Source: Bradyrhizobium diazoefficiens
GTDB taxonomy: Bacteria; Pseudomonadota; Alphaproteobacteria; Rhizobiales; Xanthobacteraceae
Length of the DNA: 64,000 nucleotides
Direction of reading: 5' to 3'
Assembly (NCBI RefSeq): GCF_016612535.1
Contig: NZ_JAENXS010000002.1
Coordinates: 2,976,001-3,040,000 of the forward strand
The notes below the pieces were generated by a model. It saw only the letters and a program-made list of their open reading frames with translations, made no database searches and was not told the origin of the DNA. Shown here in pieces: positions 36,379 through 59,786 of this stretch. Both the position numbers and the translations under genes were made by a program. Within the stretch, counting starts at the first letter, position 1. Each line of letters starts with the position of its first letter.

Positions 36379-36387
36379 AAACTTCAC

Positions 36388-38893: not shown

Positions 38894-39727
38894 TCATTTG
38901 GCGGCATCGCGCTTATGGGAAACGCGCGTCTCGATGATATCGATGACGAAGTAGAGCATCACACCGAGTGCCGAGATCGTCACCACGGTCGCAAAGTTGA
39001 GCGTGGTGTCGAATTGTGAATTCGCCTGGAGCTGAAGATATCCGAGCCCTCGCTCAGCCGCGACGTATTCGCCGATAACCGCGCCGATGACCGCGAGAGA
39101 AATCGCGACCTTGAAGCCAGCGAATATATTGGGCAGCGCTGCCGGCAGGCGCAGCTTGAAGAAGGTCTGCCATTCGTTCGCGCCCATGGATCGGACGAGA
39201 TTGACGAGATTCTTGTCGAGCGACTGCAGGCCGACGACGGTCGAGATCACGATCGGAAAGAACGAGATCATGAAGGCAAGCACGATCTTCGGTGCCCATC
39301 CGTATCCGAGATACAGCACTAGGATCGGCGCCAGCGACACTTTGGGGACGGTCTGCAGGCCGACGAGGATCGGATAAATGGCTCGTTCGAAGGCCCTGGA
39401 ATAGAAGATCGACAGAGCCAGAGGAATCCCGATCAGCGCTCCGAGAGTGAAGCCGAAGATCACTTCGAGCAGTGTCACATAGGTATGGGCCGAGAGCAGC
39501 GGCAAGTCGTGGACGATGCGCTTCGCGATGGCGAGCGGCGTCGGCAGGACAAACTCTGAAAGCCCTGACAACGGCACGAGAATTTGCCAAGCACCGATCA
39601 GCACGGCAGCGACGAGGAGCGCCGAATAGCGATCCTGCCAGCTGACGCGGGCCCGCTTCTTGCCGCTCATCCGCTTATCCTGCTTCCGCTGCGCCTTACC
39701 GGCGCTGACAATATCCGTACTCGCCAC
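38894..39727 (-). CDS. ABC transporter permease
   Basis: A 277-residue inner-membrane permease with about six helices and the EAA-type loop (LVRSMGANEWQTFFKLRLPAALPNIFAGFKVAISLAVIG). The N-terminus is basic (MASTDIVSAGKAQRKQDKRM). It is the first large gene behind the operator/promoter at 40088-40125, with a possible small leader ORF in between. Confidence 0.92.
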   Translation of the reverse strand: MASTDIVSAGKAQRKQDKRMSGKKRARVSWQDRYSALLVAAVLIGAWQILVPLSGLSEFVLPTPLAIAKRIVHDLPLLSAHTYVTLLEVIFGFTLGALIGIPLALSIFYSRAFERAIYPILVGLQTVPKVSLAPILVLYLGYGWAPKIVLAFMISFFPIVISTVVGLQSLDKNLVNLVRSMGANEWQTFFKLRLPAALPNIFAGFKVAISLAVIGAVIGEYVAAERGLGYLQLQANSQFDTTLNFATVVTISALGVMLYFVIDIIETRVSHKRDAAK

Positions 39728-39978: not shown

Positions 39979-40087
39979 CCCGTTCACTCCCTGTCGAGCT
40001 GGAGCTGGATTGCACCACCCGGGCATCACGGTTCGTGTGGCCCTTGCCTGCGGTCCGACGGCGCTCCATTCCCAAATCGATCTTTAT

Positions 40088-40125
40088 TTGATCTCATGAT
40101 GTGATCACAGTTTGATGTTGTCAAG
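40088..40125 (-). promoter_or_regulatory. Promoter with TGATC-N8-TGATC operator A
   Basis: Two TGATC elements begin at 40089 and 40102 (13 bp apart). On the minus strand a TTGACA (-35-like) lies immediately before them, with a weak -10 (CATCAT) 17 bp further on. It points to the permease/ATPase/channel/binding-protein genes. The same arrangement recurs at 48039, 53692 and 59787. Confidence 0.7.
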
Positions 40126-41306: not shown

Positions 41307-41774
41307 TCAGTTGACCTCGAATATCGCGTCGACCTCGACCGGAACGTTGCGGGGCAAGGAACTGCAGCCGACCGCCGCGCGCGCGTGGCGCCCGGCCTCG
41401 CCAAACACCTCCACCATCAGGTCAGACGCTCCATTGATGACCTTGGGATGATCCTTGAAGTCCGGCTCAGCATTGACAAAGCCGCCCAGCCGAACGACCC
41501 CAACCACCCTGTCGAGATTGCCGTCCAGTGCCTGCTTGAGCTGAGCGAGGATATTGATTGCACAGAGACGCGCAGCTTTTTGACCTTGCTCCACGGAGAA
41601 TTCCGAGCCGAGCTTACCCGTGTACTTGTCCTTGCCGCCCTCGCTGGGGACCTGGCCGGAGATGTAGATCTGGCTGCCTAGTCTTCGCGCGGGAACGTAG
41701 TTGGCGCTTGGAGACGCCGTTGCGGGCAGGCTGATTCCCAGTTGGGCCAGTTTTTGATCGATCTTTGCTTCCAT
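41307..41774 (-). CDS. RidA family protein (enamine/imine deaminase-like)
   Basis: A 155-residue YjgF/YER057c/UK114-type protein. It shows NYVPARRLGSQIYISGQVPSE, then ARLCAINILAQLKQAL.GNLDRVVGVVRLGGFVNA, and a C-terminal ARAAVGCSSLPRNVPVEVDAIF that carries the usual Arg and Glu. Family members hydrolyse reactive 2-aminoacrylate or other imines made by PLP enzymes and amine oxidases. In this district, with D-amino acid dehydrogenase and opine-dehydrogenase-type enzymes, it could deal with imine intermediates. 25 nt behind the GntR gene. Confidence 0.9.
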   Translation of the reverse strand: MEAKIDQKLAQLGISLPATASPSANYVPARRLGSQIYISGQVPSEGGKDKYTGKLGSEFSVEQGQKAARLCAINILAQLKQALDGNLDRVVGVVRLGGFVNAEPDFKDHPKVINGASDLMVEVFGEAGRHARAAVGCSSLPRNVPVEVDAIFEVN

Positions 41775-41799: not shown

Positions 41800-42540
41800 T
41801 CAATCGTCGAATTGCAGTTCCATTCCTTGTGCGAAGGGCAGCTCGGCCCCCTGCGAGTCGGCGATGCTGAGCAAGGCTCGGCAAGTCGTCCGGATGTCCT
41901 GGATCGTCCCGCGTTTGACCGCGGTTGGATTGCCCTCCTTCAGCCCCGCCAGAATGTCCTCGTGGTGAGACGCACTCCAGGGCTTCGAGGGGATCAGCAG
42001 CGACATGTACATGGTCGGTCCGAACTGCAACCAAAGCGACTCGATCAAGAGCGTGAGCGTCTCGGATTCGCTCGCCTGGTAGAGTGTGAAATGAAATTTT
42101 TGGTTGAAGGAAAGGCAGTTCAGGATGTCGCGCTTGGCGATCGCCTGAAGCAATTGCTTGTTGATGGACGTCAGTCCGTTCAACAACGCAGGCGAAGCCT
42201 TCTTGGCGGCGAGCTCGGCGGCCGTACCTTCGAGCAGTTCACGCACCGAAAAGATATCGCTCAGCTTCTCGGCGCTCAGCCTCGGCACGCGCACCGAGCC
42301 CCCCTTGGTCTCTTCCAAGGCATTCGCGGCGACGAGCTGGCTCAGCACTTCGCGAACCGGCATGGGGCTGGTTCCGAGCCCTGCCGCCAGCTTGCGCAAG
42401 CTCATGACCTGGCCGGGCACAAAGGCTCCGACCATAAGTCCTCTCCGCATATAGCCCAGCACACGCTCGTAGATGTGGCCCCGCTGCCGCTTGACTTCTT
42501 CGTTGCCGCTTCCGGCAATTTCCGCTTTCTCGGTCCGCAT
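41800..42540 (-). CDS. GntR family regulator, FCD subfamily
   Basis: A 246-residue regulator. N-terminal winged helix: IYERVLGYMRRGLMVGAFVPGQ...SLRKLAAGLGTSPMPVREVLSQLVAANALEETKGG. The rest is an all-helical FCD effector domain (VRELLEGTAAELAA, NQKFHFTLYQASESETLTLLIESLW, SHHEDILAGLKEGN with metal-binding His residues). It heads the unit gntR-ridA-cobW and is preceded by a copy of the TGATC-N8-TGATC element, so it is the best candidate to bind all five copies and control the surrounding genes. Confidence 0.9.
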   Translation of the reverse strand: MRTEKAEIAGSGNEEVKRQRGHIYERVLGYMRRGLMVGAFVPGQVMSLRKLAAGLGTSPMPVREVLSQLVAANALEETKGGSVRVPRLSAEKLSDIFSVRELLEGTAAELAAKKASPALLNGLTSINKQLLQAIAKRDILNCLSFNQKFHFTLYQASESETLTLLIESLWLQFGPTMYMSLLIPSKPWSASHHEDILAGLKEGNPTAVKRGTIQDIRTTCRALLSIADSQGAELPFAQGMELQFDD

Positions 42541-42637
42541 CTCCCGACTCTCTTTCTCTTAGGACGTCGCTGGGCGCCATCCGATATGCCTGAGGACATC
42601 GAGACCATCCCTGAAGAGTTGGACGGCGTGAGTCCTG

Positions 42638-42656
42638 TGATCTCATATCGTGATCA
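42638..42656 (-). promoter_or_regulatory. TGATC-N8-TGATC operator B (gntR autoregulation)
   Basis: TGATCTCATATCG-TGATCA, half-sites 13 bp apart, 98 bp before the gntR start. The -35-like TTGACA seen at the other sites is not evident here. Confidence 0.65.
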
Positions 42657-42799
42657 GTAGTAGATTTGAGAGCGGGCGGCAACCGCAGCGTGGAGCAGTG
42701 ATGCCGCTAATCGGCACGCCAAGGTTGGCTCGGCCTGCCGATTTGGCACAGGGAACGTGGCCCGGATCAGCTGCGTGAGCATGCACGCCGGGCCCCAGA

Positions 42800-43789
42800 T
42801 TAAGCGCTTGCTCCGACCTGATAGAGCTCGACCTTGGTTCCGTCGGGATCGGCGATGTAGATCGTCAAGCCATACGGCCCGTCGTGCAGATCATTGTAGT
42901 AGTGAACGCCGGCCTTTTTCAACTTGGCATCGAGCGCGCGCACATCATTGACCTCGAAGGCGATGTGGTCGAGCTGGCGATGGTCTGCAGCCTTGCCGTT
43001 GATGAGGGCGATGCCTTGGTGGAAAGCAACGAAGGGCCGCCCGTCAGCCAGCGGCTTGGCCGGCCTGATCGTGAATCCCAGTTGACGGGTATAGAAGTCG
43101 ACCGACCTGTCGATGTCATTGACCATGATCAACTGGTGACCGTAGTTGGTAACCCTCGGCTTCGCCTGCTCGGCGATCCAGTCGAGAACGTCCGACGACG
43201 ACGCTATCTCGCAGAAGTACTGCTTCCAGACCTGCTTGGCGGTTGCCTCCCAATCCGCATTGACGCCTGATACGCAATCCTCGACGGCAACCACATCGAG
43301 ATCCCGGAGATAGGCTTCGCGGATGCTCGTCTCGACGCAAGCGTTGGTGGTTGCTCCGGTGATGAAGAGATGCTGCGTCCCCAGCATCTTCAGCATCATC
43401 TCGAGCCTGGTCTCGTAGAACGCACCGAAGCGGTGCTTGCGGATCACGAAGGAAGGATTGAACTCGGCCAGCGGCTTGAGCTCGTCGATGATCTCCTCGT
43501 CCCAGCTGCCGGCGAGCGCAGATACCTGCTTGCGCCGGGCGGTGTGGCCGAGCAGCTTCTTCTTGGCGCGATTCCTGTCGATGGCAAAATGCTCTTGCAT
43601 TGTCCAAATGACGGGAATGTCGACGTCCTGGCACCGCTTGATCAGCCTTGCCAGCGGCGAGACGATCGAGGACAGGCGCTTTGTATCCACTCCGGAAATG
43701 CCCAGCGTTCCCTTCTCGTGGATGAAGGCGTTCTGGAGATCGATGACCAGCAGGGCCGACTTGCGATAATCGAGGGCTTCCAGGCTCAT
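42800..43789 (-). CDS. Isochorismatase-like hydrolase fused to a VOC (glyoxalase-fold) domain
   Basis: A 329-residue fusion. Residues 1-205 are a cysteine hydrolase of the isochorismatase/nicotinamidase type with triad Asp17 (VIDLQNAF), Lys118 (VIRKHRF) and Cys151 (ATTNACVETSIREA). Residues 216-329 are a vicinal-oxygen-chelate domain with metal ligands His218 (YGHQLIMV), His275 (LDHIAFEV) and Glu321 (GTKVELYQ). The first domain hydrolyses amides, carbamoyl compounds or enol ethers; the second is a metal enzyme of glyoxalase, dioxygenase or isomerase type. The fusion suggests two successive steps in one pathway. It is the last gene of a six-gene coupled operon; its ATG overlaps the preceding stop by 4 nt. 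Confidence 0.88.
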   Translation of the reverse strand: MSLEALDYRKSALLVIDLQNAFIHEKGTLGISGVDTKRLSSIVSPLARLIKRCQDVDIPVIWTMQEHFAIDRNRAKKKLLGHTARRKQVSALAGSWDEEIIDELKPLAEFNPSFVIRKHRFGAFYETRLEMMLKMLGTQHLFITGATTNACVETSIREAYLRDLDVVAVEDCVSGVNADWEATAKQVWKQYFCEIASSSDVLDWIAEQAKPRVTNYGHQLIMVNDIDRSVDFYTRQLGFTIRPAKPLADGRPFVAFHQGIALINGKAADHRQLDHIAFEVNDVRALDAKLKKAGVHYYNDLHDGPYGLTIYIADPDGTKVELYQVGASA

Positions 43790-43986
43790 TTCTTGTCCTC
43801 CACCATGTCGATGCCGAGCACGCCAGCGCGGCCCCAGCTGTCTTTTGGCGTTTCATGAATCACCACATGTAGATGATCCGGCTTGCAGGCGGCCTCCTCA
43901 ACCATTGCATTGGTGATAGCCTTTACGAGTCGGCGCTTCTGCTCGACTGTACGGCCCTCCCACATTTCGACGACGACGAACGGCAT
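43786..43986 (-). CDS. 4-Oxalocrotonate tautomerase-like protein
   Basis: A 66-residue protein starting MPFVVVEMWEGRTVEQKRRL, then VKAITNAMVEEA. Pro2 is the catalytic base in this family, which moves double bonds in oxo acids and enols. It is linked by a TGATG overlap to the gene before and by ATGA to the isochorismatase-VOC gene after. A tautomerase next to ring-opening-type hydrolases points to an unsaturated oxo-acid intermediate. Confidence 0.9.
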   Translation of the reverse strand: MPFVVVEMWEGRTVEQKRRLVKAITNAMVEEAACKPDHLHVVIHETPKDSWGRAGVLGIDMVEDKK

Positions 43987-44672
43987 CAGAAATCTCCTCC
44001 TCTTTGGATGGGTAGAGCGCCGGATGCCCAGGTGGGCACAGCGGCCGCGAAGCCCGTAACCAGATCGTTCCTTGCCCGATCGACACCGCTGAGCAGCCAC
44101 AGCGCGCGGTTGGCATAGTTGATCAAGACCTGCTCCTCCATGCACGCGCGATGGGCGGGATGCTGCGGGTCTCGATCGAAATGACTGGTGCTCGGCATCA
44201 GCCGGATGACATAAATCGGTTCCGACGGATCGAGCATCTCGGGCACATTGGTTCCGATCTCGTTGAGTCCGATCGCCAGCGGTCGCGGGTCGGCCTGGCC
44301 AACGGGCAAAAAGACCACCGCCCCCGCCAATGGCGTAACCGGCCAATAACGACCTTCCCGCCCTTCACGCAGAAAGTCGGCATAGCTGCTCATTTCCGCG
44401 AATAGCTCGCTGTCCCACAGGATGATGTCCGGCCCCAAGATCTCGCGCGCTGCATCGACGACGCCCTGACTCTCGCAGAGGCCCAGAAAGATCCAGGGAT
44501 CGGTCAAGCCGATCGCATGTCCCCATGGATTGTGGATTCCGGACAATCTCTCCTGACGGATCGTGGTCTTGCGCGCCACGATGGCGGCGACGGCTTCACG
44601 CACCGACATTTGGGCGGGCATCAGCGACTCTCGGCCTGCCAACTCCAGTCGGTGGAGGTCCGTGCCACTCAT
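43986..44672 (-). CDS. Uncharacterised protein, weakly phytanoyl-CoA-dioxygenase-like
   Basis: A 228-residue protein from ATG 44672, whose ATGA overlaps the stop of the amidohydrolase. The segment LCESQGVVDAAREILGPDII, followed by LWDSELF, resembles the PhyH core, and YWPVTPLAGAVVFLPVG resembles the following strand, but a standard HxD...H iron triad is not clear. A His/Asp-rich SHFDRDPQHPAHRA segment lies near residue 170. It may be a divergent or inactive Fe(II)/oxoglutarate-type protein, or another fold. Its place in a tightly coupled operon argues that it is part of the pathway. Confidence 0.65.
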   Translation of the reverse strand: MSGTDLHRLELAGRESLMPAQMSVREAVAAIVARKTTIRQERLSGIHNPWGHAIGLTDPWIFLGLCESQGVVDAAREILGPDIILWDSELFAEMSSYADFLREGREGRYWPVTPLAGAVVFLPVGQADPRPLAIGLNEIGTNVPEMLDPSEPIYVIRLMPSTSHFDRDPQHPAHRACMEEQVLINYANRALWLLSGVDRARNDLVTGFAAAVPTWASGALPIQRGGDF

Positions 44673-46015
44673 GACGGCAGGGTCACGCATCGACCGCGAC
44701 CGAAGTGGTGGTCGGCGACGGAACCGTTTTCATAGACGACGTCACCGCGAGCGACGGTCAGCACCGGCCAGCCCTTGAGCGTCCACCCTTCATAGATGCA
44801 CGTGCCCTTCCCGGCATGTTTGACCGTGCGCTGCTCATCAAGATCGACCAGCACGAGGTCGGCGTCGAATCCAACGTCGATATGGCCCTTGCGCGGCCAG
44901 AGCCCGAAGCGTCGCGCAGGATTGAAAGAGTTGAGCTCGACAAGCCGGGACAGCGACAAACCGCGCTGATGAACGCCGAAATGAAGCATCAGCGACAGCT
45001 CCCAGGGAAAGCTCACCACACCTGGGAATTCGGTCCAAAGATCTTCCAGCTTCTTGGGCAGGAATGGCACGTGGTCCGTCCCGAGGCTGTAGACTGAGCC
45101 GTTCATGACGCCGTGCCAAAGACCTTCGAGTTCGTTCCGGTCGCGCAACGGCGGCGATATCTTCGCACGCATGTCGAGATCTTCGTCGTAGCACGTGCGG
45201 GTGAGGTAGTGAGGACAGGTCTCGACCGTCACGCGCACGCCACGCGCCTGGGCCTCGGCAGCGAGCACTGGACCCATGCCGACGGAGGTGTGGACCAGAT
45301 GAAGCGAACAGCCGGTCTTCTCGGCAAGGAAGAGCATGCGCCGGATGGTTTCCACCTCGCAGAAGGCCGGACGCGATTCCGTGTATGCGCCGAGATCCTG
45401 ACGCCCGGTGGCCGCGATCTCCTTTTTGATCCAGGAGGCGATCTGGGTGTTCTCGCAATGAACGTTGATCACCCCGCCGGGAACCTTCGACAAGATGCGC
45501 ATCGCGGCATAGACCCAGCCGTCCGTCGCCGGCACGATGCCGATCGGATTGTCCGGCTCGTAGCCGAAATAGCATTTGAAGGATTTGACGCCGGTCTTGG
45601 CGATGACTTCCGGGATCTCGGCGATATGTTCCTCGCGCTGGATGCCAAAATGAAAGCCGAAGTCGATGACCGAGTTTTCCTCACCGATCGCCTTGCGCTC
45701 CGCGTAGAACGGCAGATAGGACTCCTTGAGATTGCGGATATAGAGAAGCGCCGTCGTCACTCCGCCGGAGGCCGCGGCGGCCGTCTCGGTGCGCATATCC
45801 TCAGCGAAGGGAAACTTCACGCCCAGATGGCAGTGCGGGTCGATCAAGCCCGGCATCAACACCCGCCCCTCGGCGTCGATGGTGCGCTTGGCTTCCGGGA
45901 GGACTTCGTCAGCCCCAGTCAGGACGATCTTGCCGTCCTTCACCGCAACACCGCCGTGGAATTCCCCGTCGTGGCGAATCACTCGCGCGTTCTTGATGAC
46001 CAGATCCGCTCTCAT
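44669..46015 (-). CDS. Cyclic amidohydrolase (dihydroorotase/dihydropyrimidinase family)
   Basis: A 448-residue enzyme from ATG 46015 (MRADLVIKNARVIRHDGEFH). Metal ligands His61 and His63 (GLIDPHCHLG), the probable carbamylated Lys in VKSFKCYFGYEPD, further His in VINVHCEN and HLVHTSVG, and the catalytic Asp region SLGTDHVPF are present. The family opens cyclic amides and imides such as dihydropyrimidines, hydantoins and allantoin. It overlaps the DpaA-like gene by 4 nt, so a cyclic amide or lactam is the likely substrate of this pathway. Confidence 0.9.
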   Translation of the reverse strand: MRADLVIKNARVIRHDGEFHGGVAVKDGKIVLTGADEVLPEAKRTIDAEGRVLMPGLIDPHCHLGVKFPFAEDMRTETAAAASGGVTTALLYIRNLKESYLPFYAERKAIGEENSVIDFGFHFGIQREEHIAEIPEVIAKTGVKSFKCYFGYEPDNPIGIVPATDGWVYAAMRILSKVPGGVINVHCENTQIASWIKKEIAATGRQDLGAYTESRPAFCEVETIRRMLFLAEKTGCSLHLVHTSVGMGPVLAAEAQARGVRVTVETCPHYLTRTCYDEDLDMRAKISPPLRDRNELEGLWHGVMNGSVYSLGTDHVPFLPKKLEDLWTEFPGVVSFPWELSLMLHFGVHQRGLSLSRLVELNSFNPARRFGLWPRKGHIDVGFDADLVLVDLDEQRTVKHAGKGTCIYEGWTLKGWPVLTVARGDVVYENGSVADHHFGRGRCVTLPS

Positions 46016-46902
46016 TGTTCTTGCTCCAGTATTGCCTCGATACGCCGGCTGATGCCGGTCCACTGGCTGCGGCCGACAGTGATCGGTGCACGGGCGCCCA
46101 TGCCGCGGGCCCAGATAGCCTTCAGCCCAAGTTCGGCGGCAGCGTCCCGGTCGATCGTTCCGGGAGGCGCTGCGACGTCGACCAGCAATGCGTGTTTGGG
46201 CAGCAGAGCCAGTTGATCGCGCTCAAGCAATCGCTTTGGAACGCTGCCGATAACGATGTCCATGCGGTTCAGAATCGCAGGCAATTGTTCGAGCGTCAGC
46301 GCCTCGGCGCCTATCGCGTGGGCGGCTGCGCGCTGAACCGGGTTGCGCGCAGCAACATGAACATGAGCCCCGAGCCCGACCAGCGTCCTCGTCAGAAGCG
46401 AGCCGATGGTGCCTTGGCCAACCAGGCAAACGTTGGACTTGTGGATGGTGATCTCTGTGTTTTCGATGATTACCTTCAATACGCCCTCGACGATCGCCGG
46501 CCCGCGCAACAGCATGAGGTCGACGTCCCATTCGTATTCGTGAAGCGCGATGCCGAGCGCCTTGCAATGGGCCTTCAGATTGTCGTCGGCCCAACCGAGG
46601 ATGATGTTGCCGGGCCGCCTCATGCCGGCCAGCATCTCGCGCGTCGGAACGATCTTTTGCGGACACTTGGGCGCGAACAGCGCGCCCTCCGCGCTGATGC
46701 CCGGAATCGGAAACAGCGCTATGTCGGCCCCCTTCAATGCATCAGCCGCGTCCGCAGCATGATAGACGCCTTCGATGCCCCCATCAGGCCAGGGAAAGCC
46801 GTAGGCTCGAACGGCAGCTCCAGCCCGCACGGCACAGCGAGCGATCTCCTGTTCGCGCGCATCACCGGCTACGATCGCGACGACTGTATTCTGCCAACTC
46901 AT
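46012..46902 (-). CDS. Dipicolinate synthase subunit A-like NAD(P)-binding protein
   Basis: A 296-residue protein resembling spore dipicolinate synthase A (SpoVFA/DpaA) along its length. The N-terminal half has VAIVAGDAREQEIARCAVRAGA, an IALFPIPG strand, PTREMLAGMRRPGNIILGWAD and RGPAIVEGVLKVIIENTEITIH. The C-terminal Rossmann domain has VCLVGQGTIGSLLTRTLVGLGAHV, then LLVDVAAPPGTIDRDAA and WARGMGARAPITVGRSQW. In spore formers this protein makes pyridine-2,6-dicarboxylate from dihydrodipicolinate together with subunit B; no DpaB flavoprotein is seen here. In a non-spore-former its role is unknown, and the pairing with an opine-dehydrogenase gene (4-nt overlap) is notable. Confidence 0.82.
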   Translation of the reverse strand: MSWQNTVVAIVAGDAREQEIARCAVRAGAAVRAYGFPWPDGGIEGVYHAADAADALKGADIALFPIPGISAEGALFAPKCPQKIVPTREMLAGMRRPGNIILGWADDNLKAHCKALGIALHEYEWDVDLMLLRGPAIVEGVLKVIIENTEITIHKSNVCLVGQGTIGSLLTRTLVGLGAHVHVAARNPVQRAAAHAIGAEALTLEQLPAILNRMDIVIGSVPKRLLERDQLALLPKHALLVDVAAPPGTIDRDAAAELGLKAIWARGMGARAPITVGRSQWTGISRRIEAILEQEQ

Positions 46903-47987
46903 GGGGCCCTTACCTTCTCAATGAGCTGATCCCTGGACATGCCGGCGACGCCCATTGCATCTGCAGTCCGCCCGCCGATCCGATAGTCGGTTCCGACCGC
47001 GGCCTGCGCAAGGCGAAAGAGCGACGTCGCGACGGGCACGTTGACATCGGCGATCCGCGCAAACTCCAGGAAGGGGAGCAGGCCGTGACCGAAATCCTCT
47101 TTGTAGTAGCGATACTCGAGCGAATCCGGTCCCTTGATACGGCGATTGGCCTCGCCGCCCGCGATTGCCGCACGGTAGTCGGTAACGTCAACCACGTCGG
47201 CTTCCACCGTGCCGAGCAGCTTCATCTCTTCAATCAAGTTCGGCAATTCATGCCCGAACGCCCGAGCGACCGCCACGCGCTCATCGTCCAATTGCCGCAT
47301 GACGCGAGCGACCCCGGGCGTCATGGCATCGACGTAGAAGGTAAAGTTGCCGCCGGTCGCCTCGACCCAGGCGGCTCCCAGCACCGCGCCGGGCGGATGC
47401 AGGACCATGTTCACGTTGGAGAGGTCGGAGGCGATGACGTCCCGAACGGGCGTGACACCCGGATACAATTTCGCAGCAACCTCCAGCGCCTCCGCTCCTC
47501 CCTTGAGAGCGGCAGCCTTCAGTTGCTTGGCCCGGCCGCTGATCGTGACACCGTCCGGACGATATTTGCGCGCGACGTATGTCAGCGTCGAGAACTCAAC
47601 CACCGGAGGCACGGCCCGCCCGGAGCGCGAATAGGCCTCGGCGAATTCCAGCGCTCCTCCGGTGTGACCGGGGTTAAGAACGACCGGTTTGCTCCACGGC
47701 CAGCCGGCCGCGGCAAGTGCACTGGCTATGGCCGAGTGCGAAAAAGTCGGCAGCACGACGACCGCGACGTCGACTCCGAAGATCGCCGACTTGAGATCTG
47801 TCGTGATCAGCGTAGGCTTCGCCACTCCTTCGCCGAGCTTACCATCGAATGCAACGCCGCCGAGCTTGATGTGCGGCTCGAGCGTTTCCGCCGAACGCGC
47901 CCAGAAATGAACGGAGTGACCCGCGAGAACCAATTCTGCGACCGAGGCCGCGCCCCCCGCTCCTCCTCCAAGTACTGCAACCTTCAT
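46899..47987 (-). CDS. NAD(P)-dependent octopine/opine dehydrogenase family protein
   Basis: A 362-residue dehydrogenase. N-terminal Rossmann motif VAVLGGGAGGAASVAELVLAGH, then VAVVVLPTFSHSAIA and VLNPGHTGGALEF. The C-terminal NAD/octopine-nopaline dehydrogenase domain shows SDLSNVNMVLHPPGAVLGAAW with the conserved His in MVLHPP, and YRYYKEDFGHGLLPF. The family reductively joins an amino acid and an oxo acid, or runs in reverse. It is the first gene of the six-gene coupled operon, behind operator C. Substrate unknown; it may oxidise an imported opine-like compound. Confidence 0.9.
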   Translation of the reverse strand: MKVAVLGGGAGGAASVAELVLAGHSVHFWARSAETLEPHIKLGGVAFDGKLGEGVAKPTLITTDLKSAIFGVDVAVVVLPTFSHSAIASALAAAGWPWSKPVVLNPGHTGGALEFAEAYSRSGRAVPPVVEFSTLTYVARKYRPDGVTISGRAKQLKAAALKGGAEALEVAAKLYPGVTPVRDVIASDLSNVNMVLHPPGAVLGAAWVEATGGNFTFYVDAMTPGVARVMRQLDDERVAVARAFGHELPNLIEEMKLLGTVEADVVDVTDYRAAIAGGEANRRIKGPDSLEYRYYKEDFGHGLLPFLEFARIADVNVPVATSLFRLAQAAVGTDYRIGGRTADAMGVAGMSRDQLIEKVRAP

Positions 47988-48038
47988 TCTGCTCTCCGCA
48001 GATCGAAGCGCAAATCGCGCCCGACGAGACCCCTATAT

Positions 48039-48076
48039 TTGATCACAGCTTATGATCACAACTGTGATTGTCAAGC
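48039..48076 (-). promoter_or_regulatory. Promoter with TGATC-N8-TGATC operator C
   Basis: TGATC elements start at 48040 and 48053. On the minus strand TTGACA (-35-like) precedes, with TAAGCT as a weak -10 after a 16-bp spacer. It lies about 50 bp before the opine-dehydrogenase start. Confidence 0.75.
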
Positions 48077-49689: not shown

Positions 49690-51129
49690 TCAATTGCCGA
49701 CGTCGTAAAGCGTCGTGGTCGTCTCGACGGCTTCGTCATGCAAACCAGCGCGCTCGACCGCCGCCGCGGCGAGTTGCCGGGCTTTGCGCCGAATCTGCGC
49801 CTCGTCGACTCCCTGCACCTTGCCGTCGACATATGACGGCTTCCCGTCGACCCAGGTCTGCACGATCGAAGCGGTCGATGCGGAGAATACCAGAGCCTGC
49901 AGGGGGTCGTAGAACGGCGTCCATTCGACGTGGTCCAGGTCGAAGAGGACGAAATCGGCCTTCTTGCCGATTTCCAGCGAACCGATCTCGTCGTCCCACA
50001 TCAACGCCTTTGCACCTTCGATGGTCGCGGCGCGCAGTGCTTGTCGTGCGGTGAAGATGTCCGGTTGCAGGCGGGCGTCCTTGAACATGCCGGCGACGAG
50101 CAGCATTTGCCGCATGAGGTTCATGTTGCCGGCGGCTGACACGCCATCGGTGCCGAGGCCGACCTTGACGCCGGCCTTCACCATCTCCGGGTATTTTCCG
50201 ATCGCGGTTGCTCCCTTCCCCAGCTTGAATGACGAGCATGGGCAGAAGGCGACGCTGGCGCCACGCTCGGCGAGCAGACGGACCTCTGCGTCGGAAACGG
50301 CCGCGCCGTGGGCGATCACCAGGTTCTTTCCGATGCCCCCGGCCCGATCGATGCGGGTGATGGGCCAGCAGCCATATTTCCTCTCGCAAACCTTTGCCTC
50401 TTCGATCGAGGTCGCGAGATGATAGGTGGTGCCGACGCCCAGCTTCTCAGCCAGTTTGACCGCTCCAACGTGGAGTTCCAGGCTGCACGGTTCCTTGCCT
50501 TCGATATTGACCCAGCAACGCGCACGGCCGTCGAGGGCGCCGTTGTAGCGGAGGACACAATCCTCGAGCACCTTGAGTGCCGCCTCGGCATTCGGGAAGA
50601 AATGATGATCCACCATTTCCTTGGTCCAGCCGCGGGGGAGCTCGGGCGGAGGATTGTCGGCGGCGTGCCGCCCGGTGATGCCGCGAATGCCGACGTTTTC
50701 CATCGCGCGAATGACGATGCCGGGATCGTATTGCGAGCCCATGTCGAGAAAACACGTGGTGCCACACCGCAGCATCTCGGTGATGCCCAGCAGCGCGCCC
50801 CAATATTCGTCCTCTTCGGTGATGTGGGCGTAAAACGGCTTGGCCCAGTGGAACACCCAGGCGCGGGTATTGAGGTTGTCAGGAAATACCGCGCGCGACA
50901 GCGTCTCCGAAAGATGAACGTGGCTGTCAACGAAGCCCGGACAGATACCGAGCATCTTGCCATCGATCACCTTGTCGAAACCGACCTTCTTTTGCCGCGC
51001 GGCCACGTCATCGGCTGGACCGATATCCGCGATACGGTCGTCTTCGACGACGAGGCTCGCGTTGCGCACGACCGTGTCGTTCTCGTCGACCGTGAAAACA
51101 AAGTTCAAGTCCTTGATCAGCGTGCGCAT
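49690..51129 (-). CDS. Amidohydrolase family deaminase/chlorohydrolase-like protein (TrzN/SAH-deaminase type)
   Basis: A 479-residue enzyme with metal ligands in CPGFVDSHVHLSE (HxH), GTTYHLATSIEEA, LVIAHGAAVSDAEV (HG.. motif) and GLGTDGVSAAGNMN (Asp). This is the mononuclear subtype of the amidohydrolase superfamily that deaminates or dechlorinates ring compounds (5'-deoxyadenosine, SAH or triazine deaminases). Substrate here unknown. It follows the M24-fold gene (118 nt) in the minus-strand set that begins at operator D, and it precedes the glycine riboswitch. Confidence 0.88.
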   Translation of the reverse strand: MRTLIKDLNFVFTVDENDTVVRNASLVVEDDRIADIGPADDVAARQKKVGFDKVIDGKMLGICPGFVDSHVHLSETLSRAVFPDNLNTRAWVFHWAKPFYAHITEEDEYWGALLGITEMLRCGTTCFLDMGSQYDPGIVIRAMENVGIRGITGRHAADNPPPELPRGWTKEMVDHHFFPNAEAALKVLEDCVLRYNGALDGRARCWVNIEGKEPCSLELHVGAVKLAEKLGVGTTYHLATSIEEAKVCERKYGCWPITRIDRAGGIGKNLVIAHGAAVSDAEVRLLAERGASVAFCPCSSFKLGKGATAIGKYPEMVKAGVKVGLGTDGVSAAGNMNLMRQMLLVAGMFKDARLQPDIFTARQALRAATIEGAKALMWDDEIGSLEIGKKADFVLFDLDHVEWTPFYDPLQALVFSASTASIVQTWVDGKPSYVDGKVQGVDEAQIRRKARQLAAAAVERAGLHDEAVETTTTLYDVGN

Positions 51130-51247: not shown

Positions 51248-52426
51248 TCAGGCGACGGCAGCCCTGCGCACGGCCCCGCTCCTCTTGGCCGTACCCACGG
51301 GAATCAGCCGGTCGGTGTCGGCGTAGTCGGAAAGCAGTTCCGATCCATTGGCCGTCACCAGCAGCATATCCTTGTTCTGCATTCCGAAGCCATGGCCGGT
51401 GTCGTAGCAAAGCGGCTCGAAACCGAGCACCATGTTCTCCTCGAGCGGAGCGTCGGTGCCCGGCTTGCCCAGCACCGGCGTCAGTCCGAGATAGGGATCT
51501 TCGTGCAGGTGCAGGCCAATGCCGTGCCCCACGAACGAGATCGGCGGCAGATCGAGCTTGGCGAGCTTCGCAATGAACGCATCGTAGATATTACGACAGC
51601 TCGCACCCGGCTTCACTTTCTCCATGATCTCGTATTTGCATTCGACCAGATGCGCCCAGATCTTCTCGGCCATGGGCGGCGCCTCGCCGACGATCGCCGT
51701 ACGGCAGACGCCGGCCTGATACCCATCGATCACGGAAAAGATCTCCACCCGGCAGACGTCCCCACGCTTCAAGATGCGCTCCGACGGGCCGACGTTCGGC
51801 AAGACGCTGCGCTCGCCGGTCGCCACGATCATCAGCTTGAAGTGATCGGCGCCCAGAGTATAGACATTGCGCGTCAAGTGGCCGGCGATGTCCATTTCGG
51901 AATTGCCCTCGTCGACCACGGCGAGCGTGTCGGTGATGGCCTGGTCGGCAATGCGGGAAAGCCTGCGCAAGAGCGCAATCTCCTCCGAAGTCTTGATCTG
52001 ACGGAGCCGCGCCAGGATCGGCTCGGCGCGCTCGAACTTCGCGGCCGGCATGGCCGCGAGCAAACGGGCAAAATCACCCGCCGGCAGGTAATCCATTTCG
52101 AGTCCAATGCGACCGTGAGCAAGTCCGAGCCCCGCGAGCTGGTCGGCGAGCACAAGCATGGGATCGTCCGAGAATTCCGCCCAAATGCGCGTAGGCACGC
52201 CCGGCTGGCGACGTTTGATCGTCGATGCTTCCATATCGACGCCGAACAATGCCGTGCGGCCGTCGGCAGTGACGATGGTCATCGCATGGCGGTGACGGAT
52301 GAGCGGTTGCGAGGGGACCACGAACCCCGCAGTGTACGAGAAATTTTCGGGCGACGAGCAGATGATGGCATCCAGCTCATGCTGAGACATTGACTTGACT
52401 TGTTTCGCGACGATTTCCGCCCGCAT
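51248..52426 (-). CDS. M24-fold (creatinase/aminopeptidase P-like) hydrolase lacking standard metal ligands
   Basis: A 392-residue protein with a creatinase N-terminal domain and the pita-bread C-terminal domain. Aligned to aminopeptidase P, the first metal Asp is Glu (CRVEIFSVIDGY), the second is Gly (GYQAGVCRT), the His is kept (GHGIGLHLHEDP), one Glu is kept (VLGFEPL) and the last Glu is replaced (MQNKDML). So three of five ligands differ and it is unlikely to be a metallopeptidase. Creatinase and some ectoine-hydrolase-like members also use this fold without peptidase action. It probably hydrolyses a small C-N bond in this pathway. It begins 36 nt after the racemase-like gene. Confidence 0.85.
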   Translation of the reverse strand: MRAEIVAKQVKSMSQHELDAIICSSPENFSYTAGFVVPSQPLIRHRHAMTIVTADGRTALFGVDMEASTIKRRQPGVPTRIWAEFSDDPMLVLADQLAGLGLAHGRIGLEMDYLPAGDFARLLAAMPAAKFERAEPILARLRQIKTSEEIALLRRLSRIADQAITDTLAVVDEGNSEMDIAGHLTRNVYTLGADHFKLMIVATGERSVLPNVGPSERILKRGDVCRVEIFSVIDGYQAGVCRTAIVGEAPPMAEKIWAHLVECKYEIMEKVKPGASCRNIYDAFIAKLAKLDLPPISFVGHGIGLHLHEDPYLGLTPVLGKPGTDAPLEENMVLGFEPLCYDTGHGFGMQNKDMLLVTANGSELLSDYADTDRLIPVGTAKRSGAVRRAAVA

Positions 52427-52462: not shown

Positions 52463-53623
52463 TTAGTCCCGCACGCGGTACTTTTCGATTTTCTTCTGAT
52501 CGACCTCGATACCCATGCCCGGTCCGGATGGAACGACGATTGCGCCATCCGCGACCTTCATCGGCTCGACTAGCAGGTCGTCCTTATAGTAGATGCCGGC
52601 GACCTGACCCTTCAGGAACTCCGCCGGCGTCGAAATCGGAATGACGCAAGACAGGGTCACCGCGGGTGAAGCTGCGGCGAGCTGGACGTTGGCGAGATTC
52701 CCGATTCCGGTCTCGATCGAGCCGTTGACGTTGCAGATGATGCCGGCTGCCCGGCACACCGCGCCGACCTCCATGGCCTTGTAGAGACCACCAGCCTTGG
52801 TCGTATAGATGGAGACGATCTGGATGCCGCCGGACCGAACGATCTGGATCGAATCGTGCGCATTCCAGGCTGACTCGTCGGCCATGACGGGCGCATCGAT
52901 GCGGCGGCCAACCTCAGCAATGCGCTCGATGCCCATGACTGGCTGCTCGACATATTTTAGCCGATCCTTCTCCATCCTGCGAACGACCTGAACGGCCTCG
53001 CCGGGCGTCTTGTAGCCTTCGTTGGCGTCAACGCAGATTTCGACGGCATTGCCGGCGACCTCGCGCACGGCACCGACCATCGCAACGTCGCGATCCGGAT
53101 CGACGCCGATCTTCACCTTGATGGTCCGCACCCCCTCCTGCACGAGCTTGGCAACCTCGAGGCGGGCCTCTTCGATCGAGATCAAGCCGATGGAATGCGT
53201 CACGGGCACGCGATCGCGCGCCCTGCCGCCGAGCAGGGTACTGACGGGGATATCGAGCCAACGACCGGCAAGGTCGTAGGCGGCGAATTCGACGGCGGCC
53301 TTGGAATAGGGGTAGCCCCTGATGACGGCGTCCATTCGCGCGTGCAGTTCGGCGATATTACCGAGCTCGACACCGACAATCGCAGGCGCCAGATAGGTGT
53401 CGATCACGACGCGCGTGATCACGGCGGATTCGCCGAAATACCGGCCGAACTCGCCACCCCAGTCCTTGAGTGCCGGCGCCTCGCCCCAACCCACGCGACC
53501 GTCGCTGTCGGTCATCTTAACGATGACATAGCGACCGATCACCTCGGTCAGACCTGCCCATTTGTGCTCTCGCCGGGTCGGCAGTTGGACAATCAATGTT
53601 TCGACGGATTTGATCGTGGGCAA
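52463..53623 (-). CDS. Mandelate racemase/muconate lactonizing enzyme family protein
   Basis: A 386-residue enolase-superfamily enzyme. Catalytic and metal residues are visible: Lys169 and Lys171 (TIKVKIGVD), metal ligands Asp199 (CVDANEG), Glu226 (YVEQPV) and Asp249 (MADESAW), and the second catalytic Lys276 (YTTKAGG). The K-x-K plus Lys pattern is that of muconate lactonizing, dipeptide epimerase and N-acylamino acid racemase groups rather than mandelate racemase proper. It is the first gene behind operator D and leads the set with the M24-fold and amidohydrolase genes. An epimerisation or lactonisation step on an amino-acid derivative is plausible. Confidence 0.9.
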   Translation of the reverse strand: MPTIKSVETLIVQLPTRREHKWAGLTEVIGRYVIVKMTDSDGRVGWGEAPALKDWGGEFGRYFGESAVITRVVIDTYLAPAIVGVELGNIAELHARMDAVIRGYPYSKAAVEFAAYDLAGRWLDIPVSTLLGGRARDRVPVTHSIGLISIEEARLEVAKLVQEGVRTIKVKIGVDPDRDVAMVGAVREVAGNAVEICVDANEGYKTPGEAVQVVRRMEKDRLKYVEQPVMGIERIAEVGRRIDAPVMADESAWNAHDSIQIVRSGGIQIVSIYTTKAGGLYKAMEVGAVCRAAGIICNVNGSIETGIGNLANVQLAAASPAVTLSCVIPISTPAEFLKGQVAGIYYKDDLLVEPMKVADGAIVVPSGPGMGIEVDQKKIEKYRVRD

Positions 53624-53691
53624 ATGGGCCTGCCTTATTCGTTTCAGTTTCGCACTCGGTTTGCTAGGTTAAAAGCCAAGATCATTTATCG

Positions 53692-53729
53692 TGATCACAC
53701 TTTATGATCATAATGCTGGCCGGTCAAGT
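53692..53729 (-). promoter_or_regulatory. Promoter with TGATC-N8-TGATC operator D
   Basis: TGATC elements start at 53692 and 53705; an imperfect third (AGATC) lies a further 13 bp away at 53679. On the minus strand TTGACC precedes and TAAAGT sits at a -10 position with 17-bp spacing. About 70 bp before the racemase-like start. Confidence 0.75.
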
Positions 53730-53787
53730 GGCGCGAGGCCGCGTGGCGGTGGGCGTCGAAGGCCCTACGGGGGCGGAGGAGAAAAGA

Positions 53788-54111
53788 TTGACGATCGTCG
53801 AAGCAACGAACTACTTTGCCAAGCAGGGCCAAGCGTCGGCAGTGCTCGAGCAGCGCCGCCAGGCAACCCGCATCCGGTGCGAGCTCGGGCTCGACCCCGG
53901 CGAAATCCTCGTCCTGCGCGAAGGAAATGGGCCTGACGTCAGGTGGGAGTGTCGATTTCCCACTCGCGCAGCATACGACGCCGACATGGCAGCTCGAGCC
54001 GGCTCCGAGACGTTTATCCAAGCACGCCGGGTGATGCACACGCTGGTGGACCGGTTCGAGCGGCACGTCTATGAAGTGGACGAGAGCCGCTCACAGCGCC
54101 ACGCATCTTAG
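53788..54111 (+). CDS. Small NIPSNAP/dimeric alpha-beta-barrel-like protein
   Basis: A 107-residue protein with a probable TTG start at 53788, chosen because GGAGGA lies 7 nt before it and the earlier part of the frame runs through operator D. The sequence (IVEATNYFAKQGQASAVLEQ, RRQATRIRCELGLDPGEILVL, RWECRFPTRAAYDADMAAR, SETFIQARRVMHTLVDRFER) fits a ferredoxin-like alpha/beta fold used by NIPSNAP and Dabb proteins, which often act as small monooxygenases or stabilising proteins. Divergent from the racemase-like operon and may share operator D. Confidence 0.65.
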   Translation: MTIVEATNYFAKQGQASAVLEQRRQATRIRCELGLDPGEILVLREGNGPDVRWECRFPTRAAYDADMAARAGSETFIQARRVMHTLVDRFERHVYEVDESRSQRHAS

Positions 54112-54298: not shown

Positions 54299-55318
54299 AT
54301 GTCATTCATCCAGAACACTTGGTACGCCGCGGCATGGTCGCGTGAAATCACACGCAGCTTGCTGTCACGAACGATCGCCAATGAAGGCATCGTCTTCTAC
54401 CGCAAGGAAGCCGGCGATATCGCCGCCCTGACCGACCGGTGCCCGCATCGCTTCGTCCCGCTTCACCTCGGCAAGCTCAAAGGCGACATCGTCGAATGCG
54501 GCTATCACGGACTGTGCTTCGATCCGAGCGGCGCATGTACTCTCAATCCGCATGGCGATGGCGCGATCCCGAGGGCAGCCAAAGTCAAGAGCTACAAGGT
54601 CGTGGAGAAACACGATGTAGCCTGGATTTGGCTTGGAGACGCAAGCAAGGCGGACGAGTCTTTGATCGCGGACTTCAGTGTTTTGACCAACCCGAAGTTT
54701 CGGACGGTTAGCAGCTATCTTCACGTCCGGGCAAATTATCAGCTGGTGTCCGACAACCTGCTCGATTTGAGTCATGGGCAGTATCTTCACCCGATGTTCA
54801 AGAATGCGGAGGGGCCGCCCAAATTCGAGGCTGAAAAAGAACCGCAGCCCAACGAAGTTTGGGCAAGATTCTCGCGCCCTAATCAACTGCCGAACAAGTA
54901 TTTTCAGATGCTGGGGTTTCCAAAGGATCAGCGAGGCGACCATCGCAACTTCATGCGGTGGAACGCTCCGTCGCTGCTTCTGCTCGACGTCGGCATGACC
55001 GGCGTCAACAGACCGGTAGAAGACGGCCTCTCAATTCCAACGTCTCACCTGCTCACGCCGGAAACAGAAACATCGACACACTACTTCTGGGCTATGTCGC
55101 GCGATTTCCGCCAGGATGAGGATGACCTCAGCCAGGAATTGCTAAGGGCCGGCGTGGCTCTGTTCGACGATGAAGACAAGCCCGTGATCGAGGCTCAGCA
55201 GCGCATGGTGAACACCCAGGACCTGATGTCGCTCAAACCGGTTCTTCTACAGACCGACGGCCCGGCAGTCAGGGCACGGCGGATCGTGGAGGCTCAGCTC
55301 AAAGCCGAGCAGCCGTAA
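54299..55318 (+). CDS. Rieske non-heme iron oxygenase, alpha subunit (VanA-like)
   Basis: A 339-residue oxygenase from ATG 54299 with AGGAG 4 nt before it. Rieske ligands Cys48/His50 (RCPHR) and Cys67/His70 (CGYHG); catalytic iron region NLLDLSHGQYLHP. Start MSFIQNTWYAAAWSREI is like the oxygenase at 21357, its paralogue. It probably demethylates or hydroxylates an aromatic or N-methyl substrate, using the reductase encoded convergently at 55664-56629. A strong terminator follows. Confidence 0.92.
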   Translation: MSFIQNTWYAAAWSREITRSLLSRTIANEGIVFYRKEAGDIAALTDRCPHRFVPLHLGKLKGDIVECGYHGLCFDPSGACTLNPHGDGAIPRAAKVKSYKVVEKHDVAWIWLGDASKADESLIADFSVLTNPKFRTVSSYLHVRANYQLVSDNLLDLSHGQYLHPMFKNAEGPPKFEAEKEPQPNEVWARFSRPNQLPNKYFQMLGFPKDQRGDHRNFMRWNAPSLLLLDVGMTGVNRPVEDGLSIPTSHLLTPETETSTHYFWAMSRDFRQDEDDLSQELLRAGVALFDDEDKPVIEAQQRMVNTQDLMSLKPVLLQTDGPAVRARRIVEAQLKAEQP

Positions 55319-56629: not shown

Positions 56630-56743
56630 CGTTCCAATCCGGCGCATGCCATGAGCGACTGCCCGCCATCGCCGCAATCACTGCCTAAGGGCTGAATGTT
56701 ATTCAATTCCAGAATGACCCGGAAATTGGTTTCTCGGAGCCCA

Positions 56744-58494: not shown

Positions 58495-58742
58495 GTAACC
58501 ATTCTTCCCGCTGGCAGAGCTGCGAGCCGGTGCGCAAGAGTTCGCAGTCGATGTGGCATACCGCACGTTCATTCGTGCCTGACTTGGGGGCTGGGCAACT
58601 ATCCAAGGAGGAAATGTACGACGTTCACAACGCTTCGCCTCGGCGACGAGGCGCCATGCCGGTCAGCGCGATGAGGCGGCGGGACCGCAGCAGATGGTCG
58701 GATAGCTGTATCTATCGACCGCGGCCAACGACGTTGCGCAAG

Positions 58743-59726: not shown

Positions 59727-59786
59727 AAGTCCCTCCTCTTGTCTCTGGGCAAGTGCCCGTCGTAGAAACCGAGCCGCCCCGGTATT

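What the first reader, a model, noticed from the sequence alone, without database searches (positions are those of the whole stretch)
42800..47987. Six-gene coupled operon joining opine-dehydrogenase-like, DpaA-like, cyclic amidohydrolase, tautomerase and isochorismatase-VOC genes
Every junction overlaps by 1 or 4 nt, so the proteins are made together. A dipicolinate-synthase-A homologue in a non-spore-former, directly coupled to an opine dehydrogenase, is unexpected, and I know no described pathway with this set. A working idea is import of an opine-like or lactam/imide compound, oxidation by the two dehydrogenases, ring opening by the amidohydrolase, then tautomerisation and amide hydrolysis. 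The reverse (synthesis of an opine-like metal chelator, with the CobW protein nearby) is also possible.
Basis: partly seen in the sequence, partly recalled or inferred. Interest (0 to 1): 0.88.

Follow-up and report, generated by a model that had tools for sequence, protein, structure and literature searches.

The report
Inducible gene cluster degrading unknown N-heterocycle
A soil bacterium carries a tightly packed six-gene operon that is one part of a larger, commonly controlled and sometimes plasmid-borne set of genes, most likely for importing and breaking down a nitrogen-rich ring compound whose identity is still unknown.

Summary
The operon is real and the junctions are as stated: overlaps of 4, 4, 4, 1 and 4 nt. 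It is the middle of a larger unit. A direct repeat, TGTGATCA-N5-TGTGATCA, occurs at five places between 40.1 and 59.8 kb (11 matches against 0.39 expected). It links the operon to mle-m24-trzA, gntR-rid-cobW, an NMT1-type ABC transporter and genes including a chemoreceptor. The repeat is in 36 of 36 related loci that carry the gntR orthologue. Relatives lie in Bradyrhizobium, Aminobacter, Shinella, Mesorhizobium, Variovorax and others.

The DpaA-like protein is not the sporulation enzyme: separate clade, below both NCBIfam cut-offs, no DpaB found, no shared neighbourhood. The cluster is modular: dpaA, tautomerase and VOC form the core. The hydrolase set (trzA, cah, gene 4, isochorismatase, CobW) comes and goes largely together; where it is missing a molybdenum hydroxylase is often present. 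CobW follows the amidohydrolases, which argues against a metallophore.

Best reading: a catabolic regulon for a cyclic ureide- or amidine-like N-heterocycle. Substrate and step order are inferred. Gene 4 has a predicted PhyH fold without its iron triad.

The parts
46899..47987 (-). odh: opine-dehydrogenase-like (CENDH type)
   Evidence: PF02317 122.2 bits, cut-off 30; N-(1-D-carboxylethyl)-L-norvaline dehydrogenase 1bg6 E=1.5e-51
46012..46902 (-). dpaA-like NAD(P)-binding oxidoreductase, a non-sporulation subfamily
   Evidence: PF16924; below NCBIfam cut-offs; separate clade
44669..46015 (-). cah: hydantoinase/dihydropyrimidinase-family cyclic amidohydrolase
   Evidence: best PDB hit 1gkr L-selective hydantoinase E=3.9e-63; H61, H63, K147, H186, H242, D314 in 43 of 43 aligned (metal-site roles recalled)
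43986..44672 (-). gene 4: predicted PhyH-fold protein without the canonical HxD...H iron site ('resolvase' in public annotation)
43786..43986 (-). tau: 4-oxalocrotonate-tautomerase-like
   Evidence: PF01361; N-terminal Pro and an Arg in 27 of 27
42800..43789 (-). isochorismatase-family hydrolase fused to a VOC domain
   Evidence: D17, K118, C151 and VOC H218, H275, E321 in 39 of 39 aligned (roles recalled)
48038..48060 (-). operator upstream of odh (0 mismatches)
41800..42540 (-). gntR: FCD-type regulator, proposed repressor of the unit
   Evidence: PF00392 + PF07729; operator-gntR co-occurrence
42636..42658 (+). operator upstream of gntR
41307..41774 (-). rid: RidA/YjgF family
   Evidence: PF14588
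40305..41303 (-). cobW: CobW-family GTPase, probably a metallochaperone
   Evidence: PF02492; tracks trzA
40087..40109 (-). operator between cobW and the ABC transporter genes
38894..39727 (-). ABC permease
   Evidence: PF00528
38041..38844 (-). ABC ATPase (NitT/TauT-like)
35377..36387 (-). NMT1/THI5-like substrate-binding protein (membership by position)
   Evidence: PF09084
48124..49398 (-). dadA: FAD-dependent D-amino-acid dehydrogenase
   Evidence: NF009074 725.2 bits, cut-off 494; in 14 of 41 loci
49690..51129 (-). trzA: TRZ/ATZ-family amidohydrolase with T240 where an aligned paralogue has Glu
   Evidence: H70, H72, H237, H274, D328 in 37 of 37, T240 in 36 of 37, the exception being the paralogue L028_10; alignment
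51248..52426 (-). m24: creatinase/prolidase-fold hydrolase with several metal-ligand positions changed
   Evidence: PF00557; alignment to 1pv9; N211, H301, E337, Q350 in 35 of 35, E228 and G239 in 34 of 35, the exception being the distant L052 protein
52463..53623 (-). mle: enolase-superfamily racemase/cycloisomerase
   Evidence: PF13378; K171 and K276 in 36 of 36
53679..53712 (-). operator between mle and the divergent + strand gene
53704..54111 (+). small conserved protein divergent from mle, no Pfam hit
54299..55318 (+). VanA-like Rieske oxygenase (accessory)
   Evidence: PF19112 and PF00355; L028 holds a copy about 63% identical
55664..56677 (-). Fer2-type reductase (accessory)
   Evidence: PF00111
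56815..58572 (-). sCache_2 chemoreceptor (accessory)
   Evidence: PF17200, PF00015
58743..59726 (-). second NMT1/THI5-like substrate-binding protein
   Evidence: PF09084
59785..59807 (-). operator upstream of the second substrate-binding protein

Best explanation
The six genes are the central operon of an inducible, patchily distributed and in some hosts plasmid-borne catabolic regulon, controlled by the linked FCD-type GntR repressor. An ABC transporter imports a nitrogen-rich heterocycle, most likely a cyclic ureide or amidine (hydantoin-, creatinine- or aminopyrimidine-like) carrying an amino-acid side. TrzA and Cah, supplied with metal by CobW, hydrolyse and open the ring. The isochorismatase domain removes a carbamoyl or amide group. 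The released N-substituted amino acid is oxidised by the opine-dehydrogenase-like and DpaA-like enzymes, RidA clears imines, and the tautomerase and VOC domain process the unsaturated keto or enol acid. In some hosts the carbon ends as glyoxylate, taken up by malate synthase G. Shown: the operon, the shared operator, conserved neighbourhood and module structure. Inferred: repression by GntR, direction (catabolism), substrate class, every individual reaction and the order of steps.
For: Shared operator at five places (11 matches against 0.39+-0.62; 0 of 100 shuffles as many); the four zero-mismatch hits to a degenerate form of it in the 8.0-Mb genome all lie here. 36 of 36 loci with a gntR of at least 50% identity have the operator. 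At odh it overlaps the stretch after a TTGACA box, as expected for a repressor. In L025 and L030, among others, the transporter genes directly precede odh-dpaA-cah-gene 4-tau-isoVOC. Modules (41 loci): isochorismatase in 30 of 30 loci with cah, 0 of 11 without; gene 4 in 28 of 30 against 0 of 11; cobW in 27 of 29 loci with trzA against 0 of 12; m24 in 35 of 35 loci with mle against 1 of 6. Expected catalytic residues kept in cah, isochorismatase, VOC, tautomerase and mle. Malate synthase G, a heme-binding protein, cytosine deaminase and transhydrogenase genes accompany the cluster on some annotated plasmids. D-amino-acid dehydrogenase, malate synthase G and the heme-binding protein also stand together on a Mesorhizobium plasmid stretch annotated without a dpaA-like gene.
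Against: No substrate is known and no enzyme here was assayed. trzA lacks the Glu of the aligned paralogue and M24 lacks several metal ligands, so their reactions cannot be read from the family. 11 of 41 loci keep most of the core without cah and isochorismatase, so the ring-opening steps are not universal. Three loci carry both cah and a Mo-hydroxylase (L030, L031, L046). dadA is in 14 of 41 loci and malate synthase G in 6 of 41. Fisher tests were not corrected for relatedness. The operator was also found in 6 of 21 loci without a detected gntR orthologue, and in 15 of 21 neither was found. At up to 2 mismatches the degenerate pattern has 59 forward and 56 reverse matches in the genome, so weak matches mean little.
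Confidence: 0.5

Rival explanations
1. The substrate is a pyridine- or piperidine-type dicarboxylate related to dipicolinate (or a similar N-heteroaromatic acid). A Mo-hydroxylase or Rieske oxygenase hydroxylates it, and DpaA-like, tautomerase and VOC form the common lower pathway; the amidohydrolase module is an adaptation to ureido-substituted variants.
For: dpaA, tau and VOC are the near-universal core (40, 40 and 40 of 41). A Mo-hydroxylase is present in 7 of 11 loci without cah and 3 of 30 with it. DpaA ancestry. A Rieske oxygenase stands next to the window cluster.
Against: No pyridine-ring-cleaving dioxygenase was among the neighbours named here, though none was searched for systematically; hydantoinase plus carbamoylase-like enzymes are not expected for pyridines; in 4 of the 11 loci without cah (L041, L048, L110, L113) no Mo-hydroxylase was detected either.
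Confidence: 0.2
2. Biosynthesis of an opine-like metal chelator or other secreted metabolite, with CobW in metal handling.
For: Opine dehydrogenases usually work in the reductive direction (general knowledge); CobW nearby.
Against: No nicotianamine synthase family match in the genome; CobW tracks trzA; NMT1-type binding proteins, FCD-GntR with operators, chemoreceptor and malate synthase G point to uptake and catabolism.
Confidence: 0.08
3. Degradation of a man-made compound (pesticide or pharmaceutical) by recently assembled genes.
For: Plasmid-borne in Aminobacter, Shinella and Phyllobacterium, next to transposition genes in pAA03; rare and patchy: the own genome alone among 398 of the phylum, and 9 of 397 in the order (own included, 4 of them only 31-35% identical) at E<=1e-15.
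Against: Divergence is deep: DpaA-like 49% identical in L117, which still has the operator, and 56% in the Actinomycetota MAG L052, where no operator was found. That fits an old system.
Confidence: 0.1
4. A true dipicolinate synthase pathway in a non-spore-former.
For: DpaA_N domain and near full-length similarity to DpaA 3d4o, E=2e-26.
Against: Below both NCBIfam DpaA cut-offs; separate clade; no DpaB match; in 9 of 9 Firmicutes/Clostridia loci none of the other query genes was found in the flanks held.
Confidence: 0.02

Closest known systems
Sporulation dipicolinate synthase subunit A (DpaA/SpoVFA)
   Same: Same protein family, 24-33% identical to the Firmicutes/Clostridia copies fetched
   Different: Separate clade, many family-invariant residues differ, no DpaB found, catabolic-type neighbourhood
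CENDH opine dehydrogenase (1bg6)
   Same: Homologous over residues 3-351
   Different: Substrate unknown; operon partner of a DpaA-like enzyme
Creatinine/hydantoin degradation by deiminase, hydantoinase and N-carbamoylsarcosine amidase (recalled)
   Same: Similar enzyme classes: deaminase-type amidohydrolase, hydantoinase family, isochorismatase-family amidase, FAD amino-acid oxidoreductase
   Different: Adds opine-DH, DpaA-like, tautomerase, VOC, MLE and M24 genes; among the hits shown for the unit's proteins only dadA and the tautomerase (59.7 against 55 bits) pass an equivalog cut-off
Rut pyrimidine pathway (RutB isochorismatase, RutC RidA; recalled)
   Same: Isochorismatase domain closest to RutB and biuret hydrolase in NCBIfam, to RutB in PDB, plus a RidA
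   Different: RutB at 79.8 bits against a cut-off of 377.95; no RutA was searched for
PhyH/SyrB2/EctD Fe(II)/2-oxoglutarate oxygenases
   Same: Predicted fold of gene 4
   Different: Only one invariant His, so the HxD...H iron site cannot be conserved

Membership tests
Dipicolinate synthase subunit A (sporulation) | Score above NCBIfam equivalog cut-offs | tested here: not met
   194.6 against 261 (NF006162) and 176.9 against 319.65 (TIGR02853)
Dipicolinate synthase subunit A (sporulation) | DpaB partner in the genome | tested here: not met
   TIGR02852: 0 matches in the own genome at E<=0.001; the control rings in 8 of 14 genomes, over the cut-off in 1
Dipicolinate synthase subunit A (sporulation) | Groups with sporulation DpaA in a tree | tested here: not met
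   40 of 40 cluster sequences form one clade (support 0.90) without the 8 Firmicutes/Clostridia sequences; the tree is small and its root is uncertain
Dipicolinate synthase subunit A (sporulation) | Makes dipicolinate | not testable with these tools
   needs an assay
Opine dehydrogenase | Octopine_DH domain above gathering score | tested here: met
   122.2 against 30 bits
Opine dehydrogenase | Joins or splits an amino acid and a 2-oxo acid | not testable with these tools
   needs an assay
Opine metallophore biosynthesis (staphylopine type) | Nicotianamine-synthase-like partner | tested here: not met
   PF03059: 0 matches in the own genome; the control rings in 1 of 14
Hydantoinase/dihydropyrimidinase | HxH, Lys, His, His, Asp metal-site residues | tested here: met
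   43 of 43; residue roles recalled
Hydantoinase/dihydropyrimidinase/allantoinase | Score above a curated equivalog cut-off | tested here: not met
   none of the 25 best of 67 hits shown; best 291.5 against 631, AllB 274.3 against 357.85, D-hydantoinase 271.9 against 393.25
4-oxalocrotonate tautomerase | N-terminal catalytic Pro | tested here: met
   27 of 27
4-oxalocrotonate/2-hydroxymuconate tautomerase | Score above a curated equivalog cut-off | tested here: inconclusive
   NF002571 59.7 against 55 passed, NF001966 67.4 against 80 not
Isochorismatase-family cysteine hydrolase | Asp-Lys-Cys triad | tested here: met
   39 of 39; triad recalled
PhyH-type Fe(II)/2OG oxygenase (gene 4) | HxD...H iron-binding triad | tested here: not met
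   single invariant His in 30 sequences
PhyH-type fold (gene 4) | Fold similarity | tested here: met
M24 metallopeptidase | D, D, H, E, E metal ligands | tested here: not met
   alignment to 1pv9: E228, G239, H301, E337, Q350; ligand positions recalled
FCD-type GntR regulon | Conserved operator at the regulated promoters | tested here: met
   binding itself not tested

The most novel reading that the evidence does not exclude
DpaA-like, tautomerase and VOC form a previously undescribed three-enzyme core of a catabolic route that is joined to interchangeable upper modules (amidohydrolases with gene 4 and CobW, or a molybdenum hydroxylase) for different N-heterocycles. In it the sporulation dipicolinate-synthase fold, a PhyH fold without its iron site and an M24 hydrolase without its usual metal ligands have all been given new chemistry.
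Probability: 0.35. Interest if true: 0.78.

Novelty: new variant of a known kind. Interest (0 to 1): 0.6.

Why it matters
A conserved regulon of about 20 genes in soil and plant-associated bacteria points to a compound common enough to merit a dedicated importer, and in this genome probably a chemoreceptor, yet no matching pathway was found in the searches made. It shows a DpaA homologue outside sporulation, gives enzyme families with altered active sites to assay, and the operator offers a direct reporter-based way to find the inducer.

Tried and rejected
Papers (10 searches): only listings were seen, apart from one passage of PMC10061817, which concerned dapA and is irrelevant. Searches returned nothing; one search listed 15 of 631. 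No listed title described this gene set; most subscription papers are not held. A scan for shared evolution of the genes had only three complete loci and is uninformative. The automatic count of dpaA next to tau mixes loci with and without cah and was not used. Specific substrates considered and not adopted for lack of evidence: creatinine, hydroimidazolone glycation products, lathyrine-type amino acids, betalamic acid, dipicolinate. A Pfam scan of the small divergent ORF and of the outer-membrane-like ORF at 36696-37808 gave nothing. A profile search of gene 4 against PDB sequences gave only two weak hits, the better one to the ThoJ oxygenase at E=0.12. Gene maps of relatives come from a crude ORF picker, and some ORFs in them are artefacts; presence counts use tblastn. 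57 loci were used; 41 of them have at least 5 kb on both sides and were counted, the other 16 were left out of that count. Residue counts use the window protein plus copies under 95% identity.
Full report
Observation. The six ORFs lie on the minus strand without internal stops, and successive genes overlap by 4, 4, 4, 1 and 4 nt. Pfam gives Octopine_DH, DpaA_N, amidohydrolase, nothing, tautomerase, and isochorismatase plus glyoxalase/VOC.

Larger unit. Upstream lie dadA, trzA, m24 and mle; downstream lie gntR, rid, cobW and an NMT1-type ABC transporter. A scan for related DpaA proteins in named genomes gave 63 loci. 54 of them (L001-L054, 56-94% identical) are of the cluster type, by their titles mostly alpha- and betaproteobacteria, with one Actinomycetota MAG and one MAG labelled Klebsiella. 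The other 9 are Firmicutes/Clostridia (24-33% identical), in which none of the other query genes was found in the flanks held. Annotated plasmids of Aminobacter, Shinella and Phyllobacterium carry the same core order, some with cytosine deaminase, malate synthase G, a heme-binding protein and transhydrogenase added. The cluster is rare: among 398 genomes drawn from the phylum only the own genome matches at E<=1e-15, and in the order 9 of 397, own included, 4 of these only 31-35% identical. In the family, 49 of 149 match at E<=0.001, but most are weak matches to the nucleotide-binding part; 7, own included, are 57% identical or more, two of these as broken or partial copies.

Regulation. Upstream of odh a TTGACA box is followed by TGTGATCATAAGCTGTGATCA. 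The pattern TGTGATCA-N5-TGTGATCA with up to 3 mismatches gives 11 matches at five places, all between 40.1 and 59.8 kb, against 0.39 expected; none of 100 shuffles reached 11. Over the whole genome the four zero-mismatch hits to a degenerate form all lie in this region; at up to 2 mismatches there are 59 forward and 56 reverse matches, so weak hits mean little, and the backward-pattern control of that call is not a fair one because the core is palindromic. In relatives, sites lie before mle, odh, gntR and the transporter. With at most 2 mismatches, 36 of 36 cluster loci that carry a gntR of 50% identity or more have a site; of 21 without it, 6 have a site and 15 do not, several of the 15 being short contigs. 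I infer that the linked FCD-type GntR binds the repeat as a repressor; binding is not shown.

Modules. In 41 loci with 5 kb on both sides: dpaA 40, tautomerase 40, VOC 40, odh 38, m24 36, mle 35. cah and the isochorismatase domain are together in 30 and both absent in 11; gene 4 is in 28 of the 30 and 0 of the 11. cobW is in 27 of 29 loci with trzA and 0 of 12 without. A Mo-hydroxylase large subunit was detected in 7 of 11 loci without cah and 3 of 30 with it; in L041, L048, L110 and L113 neither was detected. The VOC is a separate protein in 13 loci, none with cah, and fused to the isochorismatase in 39 loci; cah was called in 38 of these and found by tblastn in the other, L025. The loci are related, so the Fisher values are descriptive only.

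DpaA-like protein. It scores below both DpaA equivalog cut-offs. It groups with the other cluster copies (40 of 40, support 0.90) without the 8 Firmicutes/Clostridia sequences. It differs from them at many cluster-invariant positions. The genome has one DpaA_N match and no DpaB match. It is best called a DpaA-like oxidoreductase of unknown substrate.

Other active sites (residue roles recalled). cah, isochorismatase, VOC, tautomerase and mle keep their expected catalytic residues. M24 has E228, G239 and Q350 where the aligned prolidase 1pv9 has metal-binding residues; the single exception among 35 is the distant L052 protein. trzA has T240 where the paralogue L028_10 has Glu. These two families therefore do not fix the reactions.

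Mechanism. Shown: operons with importer, hydrolases and oxidoreductases that share an operator. Inferred: import, metal-dependent ring hydrolysis, amide or carbamoyl removal, oxidation of an N-substituted amino acid, tautomerisation and VOC step, with glyoxylate as one end product in hosts that carry malate synthase G (6 of 41 loci). Dipicolinate synthesis is opposed by the sequence tests made, and a metallophore is made unlikely (and the cobW-trzA link). A pyridine-type substrate remains open.

Novelty. Ten searches of open-licence papers listed no description of this set. It is a catabolic cluster, a known kind, with a combination and a modular core for which I found no description.

Noticed in passing
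window 56815-58572 and 58743-59726: A chemoreceptor with a single-Cache domain and a second NMT1-type binding protein follow an operator at 59785, so the cell may swim towards the inducer.
   Followed up: partly
window 54299-55318 and 55664-56677: A VanA-like Rieske oxygenase and a Fer2 reductase stand beside the cluster; an oxygenase about 63% identical is in the distant locus L028.
   Followed up: partly
window 53704-54111 (+): A small conserved protein without Pfam hit is divergent from mle; tblastn finds it in 17 of 41 loci.
   Followed up: partly
L110 and L113: In two genomes of the same family the dpaA-like gene is split between frames or partial, while neighbouring odh, mle and m24 are present.
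   Followed up: no
L111, L112: Another DpaA-like subfamily (33-34% identical) lies next to ABC transporter genes in family relatives.
   Followed up: no
L102-L105, L118, L119: A further DpaA-like subfamily (31-35% identical) in four genomes of the order, with other neighbours.
   Followed up: no
L097 (pAA03): The cluster is flanked on both sides by TniQ/TniB/Mu-type transposition genes on a plasmid typed as conjugative.
   Followed up: no
L117: A distant version of the cluster has a cystathionine-beta-lyase-like gene, a putative hydro-lyase and a TAXI TRAP transporter upstream.
   Followed up: no
window 36696-37808: Outer-membrane-like protein without Pfam hit between the ABC ATPase and the substrate-binding protein.
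   Followed up: no
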